Of a DNA stretch of 64,000 nt, positions 808-34,605 are shown piece by piece (within the stretch, counting starts at the first letter, position 1; every line of letters starts with the position of its first letter). The position numbers were made by a program, and so were the translations under genes. Below the pieces are notes generated by a model that was not told the origin of the DNA, searched no databases, and saw only the letters and a program-made list of their open reading frames with translations. Origin of the DNA: Pseudomonas hamedanensis (GTDB lineage: Bacteria > Pseudomonadota > Gammaproteobacteria > Pseudomonadales > Pseudomonadaceae); assembly GCF_014268595.2 (NCBI RefSeq), contig NZ_CP077091.1, forward strand, positions 2,130,501-2,194,500, given 5' to 3'.

Positions 808-2121
808 GTGGAAGCACATCTGTTGGAATGGCTGAACCTGAGCGTGCGCTGGGTTCACATGATCACTGGCGTGGCCTGGATCGGCGCGTCGTTCTACTTC
901 GTCTGGCTGGAGAACAACCTCAACCGCGTCAACCCGAAAACCGGTCTGGCCGGTGACCTGTGGGCGATCCACGGCGGCGGTATCTACCACCTGGAAAAAT
1001 ACAAACTGGCCCCACCGTCCATGCCGGACAACCTGCACTGGTTCAAATGGGAAGCCTACTTCACCTGGATGTCGGGGATCGCGCTGCTGTGCGTGGTGTT
1101 CTACTCCAATCCTGTGCTCTATCTTGTCGCCCCCGGCAGCGGCCTCAGTGGTCCTGAAGGCGTGGCCATCGGTATCGGTTCGCTGGTGGTTGGCTGGTTC
1201 GTCTACGACTTCCTCTGCGATTCGGCGCTGGGCAAAAAACCCGCCCTGCTCGGTTTCATCCTGTTCGTGCTGATCATCGCCGCGGCCTATGGCTTCAGCA
1301 AAGTGTTCAGCGGTCGCGGTGCGTATCTGCACGTCGGCGCGATCATCGGCACCATCATGGTCGGCAACGTGTTCCGTATCATCATGCCGGCGCAACGTGC
1401 ACTGGTGGCGGCGATTGCCGAGAACCGCACGCCCGATCCGGCGCTGCCGGCCAAGGGTTTGCTGCGTTCGCGACACAACAACTACTTCACCCTGCCGGTG
1501 CTGTTCATCATGATCAGCAACCACTTCCCGAGCACCTACGGCAGCCAGTACAACTGGTTGATCCTGGCCGGGATCGCGGTGTTGGCGGTGTTGGTGCGTC
1601 ACTACTTCAACACCCGTCACGACAGCCACAAATTTGCCTGGACCCTGCCAGTGGCAGCGGTGGGCATGATCAGTCTGGCGTATGTCACCGGCCCGGCGCC
1701 GATGGCGACCGCACCTGACGTGGCGAAAGCTGCGGCGAAAATCGAGTACCAGCCGCTGCCGGAAACGGCACTGGGCGGTGGCGCGAAACCGGCTGACGCA
1801 GCTCAACCGGCGGCGCCCGCAGCGCCAGCAGCAGCTCCGGCGCAAGCCGCCAATGCCGGACCCGGTTTCGACAAAGTGCACCACGTGATTCAAGAGCGTT
1901 GCACGGTGTGCCACTCGGCCAAACCGACCAGCCCGTTGTTCAGCGCAGCGCCGGCGGGTGTGATACTCGACACCCCCGAGCAAATCCGCCAGAACGCCGC
2001 GCGCATTCAGGCGCAAGCCATCACCACGCAGATCATGCCACTGGGCAACATCACCCAGATGACCCAGCAGGAACGTGACCTGATCGGTGCCTGGATTGCC
2101 CAGGGAGCGCAGACCCACTAA
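808..2121 (+). CDS. puuD: urate hydroxylase PuuD (membrane urate oxidase with cytochrome c tail)
   Basis: This 437-residue protein starts at a GTG preceded by GAGAGGT. The N-terminal two thirds is an integral membrane domain with several hydrophobic helices. A Pro/Ala-rich linker (about residues 325-350) leads to a C-terminal cytochrome c domain with the heme motif CTVCH at residues 365-369 and a later Met. This architecture is that of PuuD, which oxidises urate to 5-hydroxyisourate and passes electrons to the respiratory chain instead of to oxygen. Neighbouring alc, allA and the NCS2 permease complete urate uptake and breakdown. A hairpin terminator follows at 2130-2155. Confidence 0.93.
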   Translation: MEAHLLEWLNLSVRWVHMITGVAWIGASFYFVWLENNLNRVNPKTGLAGDLWAIHGGGIYHLEKYKLAPPSMPDNLHWFKWEAYFTWMSGIALLCVVFYSNPVLYLVAPGSGLSGPEGVAIGIGSLVVGWFVYDFLCDSALGKKPALLGFILFVLIIAAAYGFSKVFSGRGAYLHVGAIIGTIMVGNVFRIIMPAQRALVAAIAENRTPDPALPAKGLLRSRHNNYFTLPVLFIMISNHFPSTYGSQYNWLILAGIAVLAVLVRHYFNTRHDSHKFAWTLPVAAVGMISLAYVTGPAPMATAPDVAKAAAKIEYQPLPETALGGGAKPADAAQPAAPAAPAAAPAQAANAGPGFDKVHHVIQERCTVCHSAKPTSPLFSAAPAGVILDTPEQIRQNAARIQAQAITTQIMPLGNITQMTQQERDLIGAWIAQGAQTH

Positions 2122-28827: not shown

Positions 28828-29190
28828 TCAGACAGTTTTACTACTCGCTTCGGCCTGATACCGCGTCAGGCACTCAAGCAAAACGCTCATGAAACGTCGC
28901 TGATCCCTAACATCTTCATCAAAATAAGTCGTCATTCTTTCAAACACCCGATCAAAACTGTCCTCCTCACCCAAGAAATGAGCAACTGTGTCAGCTAGAG
29001 ATGTCCGCTCCCGGTAGGTGTAGCATAAAAACTCAGGTTTCAGCAGGACATCAAATAGCTCACCCAGCTCTTTATCATCATTAACATCCTTGGATACGAT
29101 TATTTTTTCTCTTTCATCATTTCTTGTATTTTCTATATCAAAAACAAATAACAAATTTTTTATATCTACAATTTTATATTGAGTTTTCAT
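28828..29190 (-). CDS. candidate immunity protein for the Rhs toxin
   Basis: This 120-residue acidic protein has no signal peptide and is rich in Asp and Glu. Its ATG overlaps the rhs stop codon by four bases (ATGA), the usual arrangement of an immunity gene directly behind a polymorphic toxin. It is much more AT-rich than flanking genes, like the toxin tip it follows. I do not recognise the family. The immunity role is inferred from position, size and composition. It ends 17 bases from the convergent EAL/GGDEF gene. Confidence 0.75.
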   Translation of the reverse strand: MKTQYKIVDIKNLLFVFDIENTRNDEREKIIVSKDVNDDKELGELFDVLLKPEFLCYTYRERTSLADTVAHFLGEEDSFDRVFERMTTYFDEDVRDQRRFMSVLLECLTRYQAEASSKTV

Positions 29191-32100
29191 CTATCGAAAT
29201 CCGTATAAGAGGTTTTAACTCGTGCATTTGGTTCAAGAATCACAACTGCTTTTGTTTGCGTTCCATACTCAAATCCGCCTCGCCGGTATCCCTCACCAAC
29301 GGTTTTCCCCATATCCATTGGCCGTCTAGAGGTTTGTAAATCTGTATATCTCAGGATCAACTGAGCTCTATAGATAGCATTAAGCTGATCTCTATGACTT
29401 AAAAAGTGCGTCGCTGCTGATGGAATCATAGGCTGTCCGTTTCTCCTTCCACCGCTATAGTTTTCTATGCAACCCGTTGTAGGATTCCTTGCTGTGGTCG
29501 ATCTTTCAAATTGAGAGTTCAAAGTAGTCTGAGCGCCATGCTTTTCTAGAAAATGTTCTCCGTTATTTGGATCTTCCATTTCATGTAAGCGCCTATAAGC
29601 ATTTTCCTCCCCAAGCTCATCAATATTCACCCGTCGTTCCTGCGCCGTCATCTTTGGCAGCGGGGGCGCTCCCTCTTCAACGGCCACGCGACCAGCCTCA
29701 TACCGCATTGGTCGACGAGGCGGTTTTGGCGGTGGGCAGTTGGAGTTCAACCCCAACGGATCCACCCACCCCGTCGGATTCGGCACGTACAGGTACTGAT
29801 TCAACCCACCCGCGAGCTTCACCGGATCCGGGGTCAGATACCGTCCCAACCTCGGGTCGTAATACCGATGCCGGTTGTAATGCAGCCCGCTTTCCGCATC
29901 GAAGTACTGCCCCTGAAAGCGCAGCGGTTGGTCCAGGTATTCTTCGCCGGCCAGGGTCACGGCGGCGACTTTGCCGTAGGCGTCGTATTGCGCCGACCAG
30001 ACGATTTCGCCGCTGTAGTCGGTGAGTTCCTGCGGGGTGCCGAGGTGGTCGAGTTGGTAGTAGAACGGGCAGGCTTTTTTCGGGCCTTTGCCGTCGAGCA
30101 GTGCCAGCGGGCGGAAGGTGCCGGGTTCGTAGACGAAGCTGCGGTATTGGGTTGGGCTGCTTTCGGCGACGAGGTGGTCGCCTTGCCAGAAGAACTCGGT
30201 GGTGGCGCCGTCGACGGTTTTACCGATGCGCCGGCCGAAGGCGTCGTATTGATAACGGGCGGTCTGGCCGTCGGGGCGGGTCAGGCCGATCAGGCGGTGC
30301 TGGCAGTCGTAGCGGTATTCGGTGACGAGGGTCTGACCGTGGCCCCGGCGTTCGCGGATCAGGTTGCCGAAGGCGTCGTAGTCGTAATGGCGGTCGCCCT
30401 GCATCAGCAGGCGGTTGCCCTTGACCTTCGCCGGTCCCGGGCGGTCCTGCATCAGCAGGTTGCCGGCCGGGTCGTGGGCGAAGGATTCGGGCAGTTCGTC
30501 GCGCGAGTGACGCACGCGAATCAGTCGGTCGAGGGCGTCGTAGCCGTAGGTGCGCTGGCCGTGGCGGCTGTCGGCAATGTGCTCGAGGTTGCCGTTGGCG
30601 CTGTAGGCATAATCGCGGCGATACAGCGCCGCGTGCTGATGACCTACAGCGTGGGCGAGCAAACGGCCCTGATCGTCGTAGGCATATTCGCTGAGCAGCA
30701 GGCCTTGCTGGCGTTGCTGCTCGCGTCCTGACCGATAAACATGCTGCGTCAGCGGCGTGCCGTTGAGGTCGATGGCTTTTAGCGCACCGCCCTTGGCGTA
30801 GTGATAGTCGAGCCGGCTGTTGTCCGGCAGGCGCATCCGCTTGAGCTGGCCGCAGGCGTCGTAGGTATAGCGCAGGGTGCCCCAGCCCTGATGTTCGGTG
30901 ATCAGCCGGTCCTGGCGGTCGTATTCGAAGGCCAGCGGGTGGTCCTGGCCGTCATCGACCGCGGTCAGTCGGCCGAGGCGGTCGTAGTCATAACGAACTT
31001 TCACCCCGTCGGGCAGGGTCTTGAGCTGCAAACGTCCGGCACTGTCGCGCTCATAACGGGTGACCAGACTGAGCCCATGCTCACCGAACTCGGTCTTTTC
31101 CAGCAAGTGACCGTTGAGGTCGTAGGCGTAGGCGGTGCGCCGGCCGTCGAAGCCGCTTTCCTCGCGGATCAGCCCGGTGGGCGTGTAATCCAGGTGGTAC
31201 TTTTCGCCCGATTCGTTTTCGATCTCCGTGAGCAGCAACTGCGCATGGTCGTAGCGGTACTGCACGCGAGTGCCGTCGGGGTTGATGCGCCGGGAAACCA
31301 GGTGCAGGTCGTCGTCATATTCGTAGCGGGTGATGCGTCCGAGTTCGTCGCGTTCGGCGGTGACCTGACCGTAGGCGCCGTAGCTGTAGGCGCGACTGGC
31401 GCCCGTAGGAGAAGTCGTCAGGATCAGCCGGCCGGCGGCGTCCCACTGCTGACGGCTGATGACGCCAAACTCGGCCTGCGTGGTGGTCCTTCGCCCCAGC
31501 GCGTCGTAGGAAAAGCGCCGCACGCCACCATCGGGCAGGGTTTCCTCGATAAGCTGGCCGAGTTCATTCCACACCCAGCGATGGCGGCTGCTGTCCGGGT
31601 AACGCAGCGACAGCAACTGGCCACGCAGGTTGTAGTAGTAATGGGTGACCTGACCGTCGGGATCCACCGCTTCGGTGACCGCGCCCTCGGCATTGCGCCG
31701 ATAGATCCACACCGCCTCGCCACGGCAACGCTTGTAGAGAAAACCGTTGCGGTACTCGTAGGACGTTGGCGTATCGTCCGGTGGAATCAGCGCGATCAGC
31801 CGCCCGACCTCGTCGTAGCGGTATTCGGTGACCGCGCCCAAAGCATCCTGCTCGGCGATCAGCCGGCCCTGTTCGTCATAGGCCTTGAGCTGTTCACCAC
31901 CATCGGCTGCGACCTGCCGCACCAGCCGCGCGCGCTCGTCGTGGACGTAGACCTCTTCGGTGCCGTCGACGTAATGCACGGTCACGCTGGCGTCGTCATC
32001 GTTCCAGACGTAACGGGTGTTCATCTGCGAGAACGAGGCCCAGTGGCGCACGCAGCGTGCTGCTTTACCTTCGCGCTCCCACTCCCAGAAAAAACTCGCG

Positions 32101-33965
32101 CCGCCGGTCAGTTGCCGCTGCAGGATGACGTGATGGTCGTCGTAGTCGTAGCGCTCGCTGTCGCCGACCGCGTTGGCCGCGGCCAGCAGGCGTTGGCGGG
32201 CATCGAAGCTGTAGGTGGCGAGGTTTTGCTCGGTGGTCCACTCGCCCTGAACCAAGACCTGATAATCGACCGCCACCAGTTGCGCGCGGTCATAGCGCAA
32301 CAACAGCGAACGTCCGGCCCCGTTATCCAGGCGCTGAATGCGATCGGCGCGATCGCGCTGCACGGTCAGACGATTGCCGTACACATCGCTGATCGCCGTC
32401 AGCCGGCCCGCGCGAAAGTGATAGAACCGCGGACTGTCGCCGGCCAGGGCGAGGATCAGCTCTTCGGGCTCATCGCCCAGAAAGATCGCCGCCCGCGACA
32501 GGCTGTTATGAATCGCCGGGCGCGCAGCGTTGGGTAGCGGAAACCGCGTGCGGCGGTTCTCATGGTCGATCCAGACCACGCCGCCGCCATCGAAAGCCAG
32601 GCGATGGGCCAGCGAATGGCTCCAGCCAAACCCGAGGCCGATATCGATCTCCACCGCGCTGGAGCGGTACAAACGGGTGAACTCGAACGGCAGCACGCCG
32701 TCGAGTACCGCGTCGGTGAGCGTCAGCAGCTCTTCGCCGGTGACCATCGATACCGGGCAGCCGTTGGTGCAGGTCAGCGAGGAGCAATCGGCGGCATCGC
32801 CGTTAGGGTTTTTTGCTTGGTCGGGAGAGTCGTCGTGAGGTTCGTCTTTCTTCAGCGTGGTGTTGCGTTTGGCATCCCAGCGCAGTTGCATCCGGCCTTT
32901 TTTCACTCCGGCGGCGATGCCCCGCGCGGCAACGGCTTTGTAGCGGTCGACGTATTCAATGAACGTGCTGACGATGCCGAACAGCGCCTTGACCAGTCGC
33001 TTGGCCACGCTGAACAGCTGCGCTGCGCGATCAGCCAGACGCAGCGTCAGATAAGCGATCCCTGCCCCCGCCCCGACAAACGTCAGAACTACGCTGATCA
33101 ACACATCGATGATCAATTGCACGATCATCATCGACGCCACTTCAGCGGACTTGCCGGCAATCTCGCTGGGCGGCAGCATGTCCAGCCACAGGCTCGCCGA
33201 CCGTAGCAGCAAGCACATCGCCGCCTCGTCACTGACCAGCAACTGCAGCTTTTCCATGAGATCCGGCGCGGTCTGCGCAAGCTTGATCAGGTCAGCCGCG
33301 CCGCTGCCTAGACGCCCGGCGAACTTGCCGGGGTCCTGGAGAATTTCCGACAGCAAACCGAGGCTGTCCCATACCCCTTCGATTGCTGCCCAGCTTCCCG
33401 CAAGCATGCCGTTGCTCGCCGCTGTCGCCACCGACTGCGACCACTGCGGCTTGAAACCCTGCCACTCGCTACGCAGCCAGCCGTCCAGTTCGCCGGTCAA
33501 GCCGTCGTAGGATTTGAACAGCTCCGCGACCTGATTGGAGGTGACAGCGCTGTGCACCAGAACGCGGTAGAACTTGCCCTCGTCGCCTCTGAACTGGCCC
33601 TTGCCCTGCTGATCAAGGGTGATCGGGGCGGTCTCGCCGCTTTCCACGTCAACCACATCGACGGTGATGTTGCCCAGCGGGATGTCGTAGACCGATTCGA
33701 ATTTGCTCTCGATCTCCATCAGCCCGCCCTGCGGGCACTGGACGACGCTGGAGGAAAATTCGCCGTCGCTGCTGCTGACCGCCGTGCTGCGATCGCCGAA
33801 ACGGATGATCCGCTCCATGCCCATCAGCGACGGCAGGCCCGCTGCGTCGCTGATCTGGTTCGCCGCTCGACTGAACCAGTGATCAAGCTGTTTGCGGTAG
33901 AGGCTGAGGGTGTCGGGAAAGCTGTCGAGTTCCTGCTCGATGCGAGCGATGACTTCCATCAACAC
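29187..33965 (-). CDS. rhs: Rhs-family polymorphic toxin, 1592 codons
   Basis: An N-terminal non-PAAR region (about 1-390) has a hydrophobic segment at 279-308. From about residue 402 a DUF6531 region (CPVSMVTGEELLTLTD) opens a long array of YD repeats, closed near residue 1406 by YLTPDPVKLAGGLNQYLYV and the DPLGL junction. The last 186 residues (29190-29747) are the variable toxin. Such proteins are usually delivered by type VI secretion, with the shell encasing the toxin. Start: GTG 33965 or, more likely, ATG 33959, which overlaps the stop of a 15-codon leader ORF and has no ribosome-binding site of its own. No PAAR, VgrG, Hcp or adaptor gene lies nearby. The core is GC-rich; the tip is AT-richer, a sign of exchange. 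Confidence 0.92.
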   Translation of the reverse strand: MLMEVIARIEQELDSFPDTLSLYRKQLDHWFSRAANQISDAAGLPSLMGMERIIRFGDRSTAVSSSDGEFSSSVVQCPQGGLMEIESKFESVYDIPLGNITVDVVDVESGETAPITLDQQGKGQFRGDEGKFYRVLVHSAVTSNQVAELFKSYDGLTGELDGWLRSEWQGFKPQWSQSVATAASNGMLAGSWAAIEGVWDSLGLLSEILQDPGKFAGRLGSGAADLIKLAQTAPDLMEKLQLLVSDEAAMCLLLRSASLWLDMLPPSEIAGKSAEVASMMIVQLIIDVLISVVLTFVGAGAGIAYLTLRLADRAAQLFSVAKRLVKALFGIVSTFIEYVDRYKAVAARGIAAGVKKGRMQLRWDAKRNTTLKKDEPHDDSPDQAKNPNGDAADCSSLTCTNGCPVSMVTGEELLTLTDAVLDGVLPFEFTRLYRSSAVEIDIGLGFGWSHSLAHRLAFDGGGVVWIDHENRRTRFPLPNAARPAIHNSLSRAAIFLGDEPEELILALAGDSPRFYHFRAGRLTAISDVYGNRLTVQRDRADRIQRLDNGAGRSLLLRYDRAQLVAVDYQVLVQGEWTTEQNLATYSFDARQRLLAAANAVGDSERYDYDDHHVILQRQLTGGASFFWEWEREGKAARCVRHWASFSQMNTRYVWNDDDASVTVHYVDGTEEVYVHDERARLVRQVAADGGEQLKAYDEQGRLIAEQDALGAVTEYRYDEVGRLIALIPPDDTPTSYEYRNGFLYKRCRGEAVWIYRRNAEGAVTEAVDPDGQVTHYYYNLRGQLLSLRYPDSSRHRWVWNELGQLIEETLPDGGVRRFSYDALGRRTTTQAEFGVISRQQWDAAGRLILTTSPTGASRAYSYGAYGQVTAERDELGRITRYEYDDDLHLVSRRINPDGTRVQYRYDHAQLLLTEIENESGEKYHLDYTPTGLIREESGFDGRRTAYAYDLNGHLLEKTEFGEHGLSLVTRYERDSAGRLQLKTLPDGVKVRYDYDRLGRLTAVDDGQDHPLAFEYDRQDRLITEHQGWGTLRYTYDACGQLKRMRLPDNSRLDYHYAKGGALKAIDLNGTPLTQHVYRSGREQQRQQGLLLSEYAYDDQGRLLAHAVGHQHAALYRRDYAYSANGNLEHIADSRHGQRTYGYDALDRLIRVRHSRDELPESFAHDPAGNLLMQDRPGPAKVKGNRLLMQGDRHYDYDAFGNLIRERRGHGQTLVTEYRYDCQHRLIGLTRPDGQTARYQYDAFGRRIGKTVDGATTEFFWQGDHLVAESSPTQYRSFVYEPGTFRPLALLDGKGPKKACPFYYQLDHLGTPQELTDYSGEIVWSAQYDAYGKVAAVTLAGEEYLDQPLRFQGQYFDAESGLHYNRHRYYDPRLGRYLTPDPVKLAGGLNQYLYVPNPTGWVDPLGLNSNCPPPKPPRRPMRYEAGRVAVEEGAPPLPKMTAQERRVNIDELGEENAYRRLHEMEDPNNGEHFLEKHGAQTTLNSQFERSTTARNPTTGCIENYSGGRRNGQPMIPSAATHFLSHRDQLNAIYRAQLILRYTDLQTSRRPMDMGKTVGEGYRRGGFEYGTQTKAVVILEPNARVKTSYTDFDR
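29190..29747 (-). other. variable C-terminal toxin domain of Rhs (about 186 residues)
   Basis: This is the region beyond the DPLGL junction. Notable motifs are GEHFLEKHGAQTT, SAATHFLSHRDQL, MGKTVGEGYRRGG and KAVVILEPNARVKTSY. A His early, an (S/A)xT F block, a GxGY loop and a closing basic beta-strand resemble RNase A-like / BECR-fold nuclease toxins of CDI and Rhs systems. That is a tentative reading from motif pattern only. The actual activity could be different. Confidence 0.45.
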
Positions 33966-34197: not shown

Positions 34198-34605
34198 TTA
34201 CTGCGTTGAATCTCCAGCCTTCAGCTGCTGTAGCTTCATCTCAGCCAAGGGATGTCCGGCCTTGGCGGCCATGCTCCACCAGCGCGCCGCTTCAGCAGGG
34301 TCCGGCGTTTGGCTAGGCGTACCGGCAAGGCTGATTACACCGACTTGATACGCCGCTTTGCCATCCCCAGCCAACGCCGCCAGACGCAGCAAACGTATGC
34401 CTTCTTCACGCGCGCCCAGACCAACGCCGCGAAAGGTCAGGATGTGCCCATAAAAGCTTTGCGCGCTGACATCGCCGAGATTGGCCATGCGCGCAAACTG
34501 GCCTTCAAGCCAATGCCAGCCGCGCGGCTGGCGGACAAACCACGACCAATGAAACAGCCTGCGGGCCAGCCAGTAACCGACCCGCGCCTTGAGGCGTAAA
34601 AACAC
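34198..34605 (-). CDS. Sel1-repeat protein
   Basis: This 135-residue protein has two or three Sel1-type helical repeats (GDVSAQSFYGHILTFRG, GDGKAAYQVGVISLAG and GHPLAEMKLQQL), a TPR-related scaffold for protein contacts. The N-terminus is basic and aromatic with a hydrophobic stretch and could anchor in the membrane. It begins directly after the stop of the 123-residue gene upstream, so both are likely in one transcript with the XRE gene. Its function is unknown. Confidence 0.75.
   Translation of the reverse strand: MFLRLKARVGYWLARRLFHWSWFVRQPRGWHWLEGQFARMANLGDVSAQSFYGHILTFRGVGLGAREEGIRLLRLAALAGDGKAAYQVGVISLAGTPSQTPDPAEAARWWSMAAKAGHPLAEMKLQQLKAGDSTQ

What the first reader, a model, noticed from the sequence alone, without database searches (positions are those of the whole stretch)
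28828..29747. AT-rich toxin tip of Rhs with overlapping immunity gene
After the conserved DPLGL junction, rhs encodes 186 residues of variable toxin and then overlaps an acidic 120-residue gene by ATGA. Motifs such as HFLEKHGAQTT, SAATHF and VILEPNARVKTSY look like an RNase A-like/BECR toxin, but I do not recognise the exact family. Base composition drops sharply compared with the Rhs core, a sign of horizontal exchange. The pair is the best candidate here for an undescribed effector.
Basis: partly seen in the sequence, partly recalled or inferred. Interest (0 to 1): 0.75.

Follow-up and report, generated by a model that had tools for sequence, protein, structure and literature searches.

The report
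RNase A-like Rhs toxin with immunity gene
A Pseudomonas carries an antibacterial weapon whose exchangeable tip looks like an RNA-cutting enzyme shaped like pancreatic RNase A, next to the small gene that should protect its owner; the pair belongs to a widespread family that the family libraries searched here do not name.

Summary
On the minus strand, rhs (29187..33965) ends in a 186-residue tip after DPLGL; its stop overlaps the start of a 120-residue acidic gene (28828..29190) by ATGA. GC is 63.5% in the chassis, 47.3% in the tip, 38.3% in the second gene.

The immunity gene, predicted all-helical and not of the Yersinia type (CdiI_2), lies beside the toxin in 30 of 30 Pseudomonas loci and next downstream in 14 of 14 distant loci. 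Orphan copies exist (9 of 59 rows). The same genome holds a second Rhs, 98% identical in its core, with a PF18431 RNase A tip and CdiI_2.

Verdict: a new family within a known kind, bacterial RNase A-like polymorphic toxins, probably delivered by type VI secretion. RNase activity, neutralisation and delivery are inferred, not shown.

The parts
29187..33965 (-). rhs: Rhs/YD-repeat polymorphic toxin chassis plus C-terminal toxin tip, 1592 codons (GTG at 33965; an in-frame ATG lies two codons further in)
   Evidence: RHS_repeat E 4.5e-69, DUF6531, RHS, TIGR03696
32856..33959 (-). N-terminal region of the Rhs (368 aa; no PAAR match in the Pfam scan of the whole protein), used for the relatives search
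   Evidence: a related N-region lies on a third Rhs of the same genome, just downstream of a VgrG-sized PF05954 protein
29748..29762 (-). DPLGL junction; with the earlier DP at residue 1380 it gives an Asp-Asp spacing of 22, as in the RhsA autoprotease dyad D1324/D1346
   Evidence: RhsA residues from PMC8765631 passages
29604..29747 (-). linker (tip residues 1-48), GC 61%, partly shared with other tip families
29190..29603 (-). RNase A-like toxin core (tip residues 49-186)
29538..29540 (-). H70, predicted general base (His175 of CdiA-CT Ykris)
29502..29504 (-). R82, predicted phosphate-stabilising residue (Arg186 of Ykris)
29211..29213 (-). T179, predicted acid-side active-site residue (Thr276 of Ykris)
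29205..29207 (-). Y181 (Tyr278 of Ykris); Y in 108, F in 22, H in 3 of 133 sequences
29553..29555 (-). H65, second invariant His, five residues before H70, also invariant in the 27 aligned PF18431 tips
28828..29190 (-). cognate immunity gene, 120 aa, acidic, predicted all-helical; ATG overlaps the rhs stop (ATGA)

Best explanation
This is an interbacterial effector-immunity pair. The Rhs chassis encloses and, by its DPLGL aspartyl self-cleavage, frees a C-terminal tip that folds like RNase A and cuts RNA without metal, using H70 as base, R82 to hold the phosphate and T179/Y181 on the acid side. The cell that makes it is protected by the overlapping 120-aa helical acidic protein, which most likely plugs the positively charged RNA groove. 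Delivery is most likely by the type VI secretion system that the genome encodes. Toxin plus immunity travel as one low-GC cassette that is swapped behind DPLGL. SHOWN here: gene anatomy, conservation, predicted fold match, linkage across distant bacteria, different tips at the same locus. INFERRED: RNase activity, self-cleavage, neutralisation, T6SS delivery, and which RNA is cut.
Against: No convincing profile similarity to PF18431: hhalign probability 2-7%, and only 1 of 30 tips touches PF18431, at E 0.054. No Foldseek row has E of 0.001 or less. Y181 is not invariant: F in 22 and H in 3 of 133. The chassis has no PAAR match by Pfam, and none of the ten PF05954 rows of the genome lies in the window, so delivery is by analogy. 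Orphan immunity genes exist: 9 of 59 rows. No complex could be modelled.
Confidence: 0.82

Rival explanations
1. The tip is a BECR-fold RNase (barnase/EndoU/colicin/RelE) like YxiD or the CDI tRNases, and the resemblance to RNase A is general.
Against: 5e3e stands 5 Z units above YxiD, with rmsd 2.1 against 3.5 A. The next eleven rows (ranks 3-13) are vertebrate RNase A-family proteins; Nsp15, a chain of a Serratia CDI complex and RelE score 2.5 or less. The four catalytic positions correspond to those of Ykris.
Confidence: 0.1
2. The tip is a true but very diverged PF18431 (RNAse_A_bac) domain, not a separate family.
For: Same order and similar spacing of HxxxxH, R, [AS]TxF or [AS]TF, and Tx[YF]; a forced global profile alignment pairs the catalytic columns. 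The nominal single-comparison P-values of the hhalign runs are 0.012, 0.013, 0.024 and 0.0013. BLASTP of the two tips of this genome pairs a 12-residue stretch round the His motif at E 0.013. One of 30 tips touches PF18431 at E 0.054.
Against: Own tip: no PF18431 hit at E 1. hhalign probability 2-7%. The two immunity families show no relation (hhalign probability 0.6%).
Confidence: 0.3
3. The tip is a decayed or inactive relic kept by hitch-hiking with the rhs chassis.
For: Broken or fragmentary copies occur in relatives: 8 of 59 immunity rows lie beside toxin fragments only, and fetched loci show a cut-short tip (L109), a shortened rhs without tip (L107) and a chassis in several frames (L117).
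Against: The window copy is open over its whole length with the invariant residues present, and the immunity gene is open.
Confidence: 0.05
4. Delivery is not by T6SS but by another route, the Rhs acting as a non-T6SS effector.
For: No PAAR match in this chassis and no PF05954 row in the window.
Against: The genome has a T6SS sheath gene and VgrG-sized PF05954 proteins; a paralogue with a related N-region lies beside one of them; PAAR-bearing relatives carry the same tip. PMC8765631 passages mention the T6SS Rhs TseI, which lacks prePAAR, PAAR and TMD.
Confidence: 0.2

Closest known systems
CdiA-CT/CdiI of Yersinia kristensenii ATCC 33638 (PDB 5E3E), the type the Pfam models PF18431 RNAse_A_bac and PF18593 CdiI_2 are taken here to describe
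   Different: No convincing sequence-profile similarity; longer spacing between H70 and T179 (109 against 101); immunity of another family; found here on Rhs and PAAR proteins, not seen here on CdiA.
Second Rhs of the same genome (G000:C1, L065:1292..6181)
   Same: Core 1004 of 1022 residues identical; also an RNase A-type tip (PF18431) with an immunity gene (PF18593 CdiI_2).
   Different: Different N-terminal region; tips alike only in a 12-residue stretch round the His motif; immunity families unrelated by profile.
Ribocin RbcN of P. aeruginosa (PMC13189344, passages read)
   Same: RNase A-superfamily fold; H60, T159 and Y161 reported as needed for cleavage.
   Different: Reported to cut eukaryotic rRNA helix 69; a search of the paper for 'Rhs' gave no occurrence; a stand-alone protein as far as the passages show.
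MafB2-CT of N. meningitidis and YxiD of B. subtilis (PMC9970974, PMC12700104, passages read)
   Same: RNase polymorphic toxins; [quoted passage not shown]

Membership tests
Bacterial RNase A superfamily branch (CdiA-CT Ykris type) | RNase A-type fold | tested here: met
Bacterial RNase A superfamily branch (CdiA-CT Ykris type) | Active-site His175, Arg186, Thr276, Tyr278 (PMC9086364 passages) | tested here: met
   H70, R82, T179 in 133 of 133 and 147 of 147; Y181 present here, F or H in 25 of 133. Equivalence rests on the aligned range, spacing and a forced profile alignment, not on residue-by-residue superposition.
Bacterial RNase A superfamily branch (CdiA-CT Ykris type) | Metal-independent RNase activity | not testable with these tools
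   Needs an assay.
Pfam PF18431 RNAse_A_bac | HMM score over the curated cut-off | tested here: not met
   No hit for the window tip at E 1; 1 of 30 relatives at E 0.054; the tip of the second Rhs of this genome, as a control, scores 78.4 bits against a cut-off of 27.
Pfam PF18593 CdiI_2 (immunity) | HMM match of the immunity protein | tested here: not met
   None in 46 members at E 1 nor in P0130/P0168 at E 10, although UniRef titles these two 'CdiI immunity protein domain'; hhalign probability 0.6%.
BECR toxin fold | Barnase/EndoU/colicin/RelE topology as best match | tested here: inconclusive
Rhs polymorphic toxin with cognate immunity | RHS core, PxxxxDPxGL end, variable tip | tested here: met
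   RHS_repeat, RHS, TIGR03696; DPLGL with Asp-Asp spacing 22; other tips at the same locus in L108 and L110.
Rhs polymorphic toxin with cognate immunity | Adjacent immunity gene specific to the tip | tested here: met
   30 of 30; 42 of 47 genus rows of 130 or more residues, the 5 unpaired rows being only 28-34% identical; 14 of 14 distant loci. Protection itself not tested.
T6SS effector | PAAR/VgrG/Hcp linkage or secretion | tested here: inconclusive
   No PAAR match in the chassis; VipB and PF05954 proteins elsewhere in the genome; PAAR on relatives.

The most novel reading that the evidence does not exclude
The tip founds a second, separately adapted branch of bacterial RNase A-like toxins, spread over Proteobacteria and probably Bacillota, Acidobacteriota and Chloroflexota, with its own helical immunity family. 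In it the acid side rests on the invariant Thr, since Tyr is replaceable, so substrate choice may differ from the unspecific Ykris enzyme. One genome then carries two RNase A-like toxins on a near-identical chassis, each with a non-homologous antidote.
Probability: 0.4. Interest if true: 0.6.

Novelty: new variant of a known kind. Interest (0 to 1): 0.5.

Why it matters
RNase A-type enzymes were known only from vertebrates until the Yersinia CDI toxin (PMC9086364 passages). This family extends the fold, by prediction, to a further set of Rhs and PAAR effectors with a separate immunity solution, and gives clear residues to test. The two Rhs proteins of one genome, near-identical in core but differing in tip and immunity, are a ready comparison for immunity specificity. 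A model for the pair would let annotation pipelines find toxins and antidotes now called 'RHS repeat protein' or 'hypothetical' (names seen).

Tried and rejected

Paper searches (listings; passages of seven papers) showed no description of this tip family. The library lacks most subscription papers. The Yersinia structure paper is not held; [quoted passage not shown] PF18431 is already listed among T6SS effectors of Klebsiella (PMC12469244 passage), and RNase A-like two-histidine toxin families were predicted in 2012 (PMC3482391 passages).

Rejected: UniRef's 'CdiI immunity protein domain' title for two homologues, because no CdiI model matches. Counting all 80 of 298 genomes as toxin carriers, because many rows match only the linker; I used the rows reaching past residue 106, of which 47 have 130 or more residues, 42 of them paired with the immunity.

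Rows dropped before counts: 3 truncated relatives, 6 of 30 pairs without enough chassis, 4 of 30 loci without enough chassis for GC, 3 of 30 PF18431 loci that did not fit the motif used to cut them, L126 with a degenerate toxin. Selection: the sequences for the residue counts were cut out with a motif that contains H70 and a His (or Tyr) at H65; all 112 proteins fitted that motif (105) or the motif of the other tip type (7), so none was lost for lacking it, but the scan itself used patterns round the His motif and AAT..SHRD. R82, T179 and Y181 were not in the motif. Several of the 14 distant loci are near-identical to each other, so they are fewer than 14 independent cases. Of the nine same-site regions, three (L119-L121) were fetched for having this tip; of the other six, found by the N-terminal region, three carry this tip (one cut short), two another, one none. 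The Anaerolineae MAG contig (L127) is close in its toxin to the Noviherbaspirillum one (L130) and may be misbinned.

Full report
OBSERVATION. The window lies at C1:2130501-2194500 of a single-contig 6.05-Mb genome. On the minus strand a 1592-codon rhs gene (29187..33965) holds RHS repeats and the Rhs-associated core. It ends in DPLGL followed by 186 residues; its stop overlaps the start of a 120-codon gene by ATGA. GC is 0.635 in the chassis, 0.473 in the tip and 0.383 in the second gene. The first 48 tip residues are a GC-rich linker; the low-GC part is the toxin core, residues 49-186.

NOT NAMED BY FAMILY LIBRARIES. Neither the tip nor the 120-aa protein has a Pfam or NCBIfam match at E 1. 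Among 30 aligned tips one touches PF18431 RNAse_A_bac, at E 0.054. Among 46 immunity relatives no CdiI or Imm family rings. A protein search found 112 relatives of the tip (7 of them of another tip type) and 74 rows for the immunity, the window's own included.

SEPARATE FROM PF18431 BY SEQUENCE. Profile-profile comparison with 27 PF18431 tips gives probabilities of 2-7%, with nominal single-comparison P-values of 0.001-0.024: a hint of kinship, not a proof. The two immunity families show no relation (0.6%). Another tip type behind the same linker (MHTVKKH...FTGFP) is closer to this family (hhalign 93%, E 3e-7, seven sequences), part of which may come from the shared linker.

THE IMMUNITY PARTNER. 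All 30 fetched Pseudomonas loci have a homologue of the 120-aa gene directly downstream, with gaps from -4 to +25 bases. In a sample of 298 Pseudomonas genomes, 47 toxin rows match over 130 or more residues; 42 are paired with the immunity, and the other 5 are only 28-34% identical. Of 59 immunity rows, 42 lie beside such a toxin, 8 beside toxin fragments and 9 (8 places) have no toxin within 1 kb; three of these lie within 3 kb of a PF18431 tip. A scan of species genomes found 70 loci, among them Pectobacterium, Photorhabdus, Xenorhabdus, Brenneria, Noviherbaspirillum, Acetivibrio and MAGs labelled Clostridiaceae, Anaerolineae and Holophagae. Toxin and immunity distances correlate beyond what the chassis explains (r 0.71, partial 0.55, 0 of 5000 permutations, 24 of 30 pairs). 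The immunity model is all-helical with no clear relative among solved folds. The Yersinia inhibitor is also helical, eight helices that bind the RNA groove (PMC9970974, passages), so a similar blocking role is plausible, but not shown.

CASSETTE EXCHANGE. Nine of the 18 larger regions fetched are the same chromosomal site: FKBP gene - Sel1 gene - rhs - EAL/GGDEF gene - tail-specific protease (gene names by Pfam). Six carry this tip family (one cut short), two carry another tip, one has a shortened rhs without tip; three of the nine were fetched because they have this tip. In the five with an intact tip of this family, the FKBP, EAL and protease proteins are 94-99.6% and Sel1 83-91% identical to the window's, while tips are 62-74% and immunity proteins 49-61% identical. 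Within the same genome a second Rhs shares 1004 of 1022 core residues (95.7% of bases). Identity falls from 26-29 to 5-10 matches per 30 bases at DPLGL, after which that gene has a PF18431 tip (78 bits) and a CdiI_2 immunity gene.

DELIVERY. The chassis has the DPLGL signature with two Asp 22 residues apart, as in P. protegens RhsA D1324/D1346, where cleavage is required for killing (PMC8765631, passages). The genome has a T6SS sheath gene and ten PF05954 rows, six of them in VgrG-sized frames of 682-703 residues, none in the window. A third Rhs with a related N-region lies just downstream of one of these. Relatives elsewhere bear PAAR domains; in Noviherbaspirillum the toxin is fused directly to one. 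The window's chassis itself has no PAAR match by Pfam. T6SS delivery is therefore likely but unproved.

VERDICT. It is a broadly spread family without a model in Pfam or NCBIfam, inside a known kind of system, not a new kind. Activity, target and protection await experiments.

Noticed in passing
G000:C1 about 371791..376680 (L065:1292..6181 and 984..1295): A second Rhs in the same genome with a 98% identical core, a PF18431 RNase A-like tip and a CdiI_2 immunity gene.
   Followed up: yes
L118:8727 (G000:C1, downstream of the PF05954 row at 2819108-2819989): A third Rhs of the genome with an uncharacterised 199-residue tip, close to a VgrG-sized PF05954 protein.
   Followed up: no
L108, L110, L111; proteins P0102, P0103, P0105-P0107, P0112, P0114: Another Rhs tip type (M-H-[TM]-V-x-K-H ... 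R ... F-T-x-[FY]-P) behind the same linker; the seven proteins are related to this family by profile (93%) and may be another RNase A-like family. P0102, the one scanned, has no Pfam toxin hit. Its immunity gene was not studied.
   Followed up: partly
G262:C20:2311-2661, G119:C1:2493643-2493987, G176:C1:1997930-1998205: Copies of this immunity gene without their toxin but within 3 kb of PF18431 matches, as expected if a newer tip displaced an older one and left its antidote behind.
   Followed up: partly
L126:3303 and L126:3852: Pectobacterium polonicum carries two immunity homologues in a row beside a degenerate toxin copy.
   Followed up: no
L130:2104-3402: In Noviherbaspirillum the toxin sits on a short prePAAR-PAAR protein and not on Rhs.
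   Followed up: partly
window 34201..34605 (-): A small Sel1-repeat gene upstream of rhs is kept in 8 of the 9 same-site regions; whether it serves the effector is unknown.
   Followed up: no
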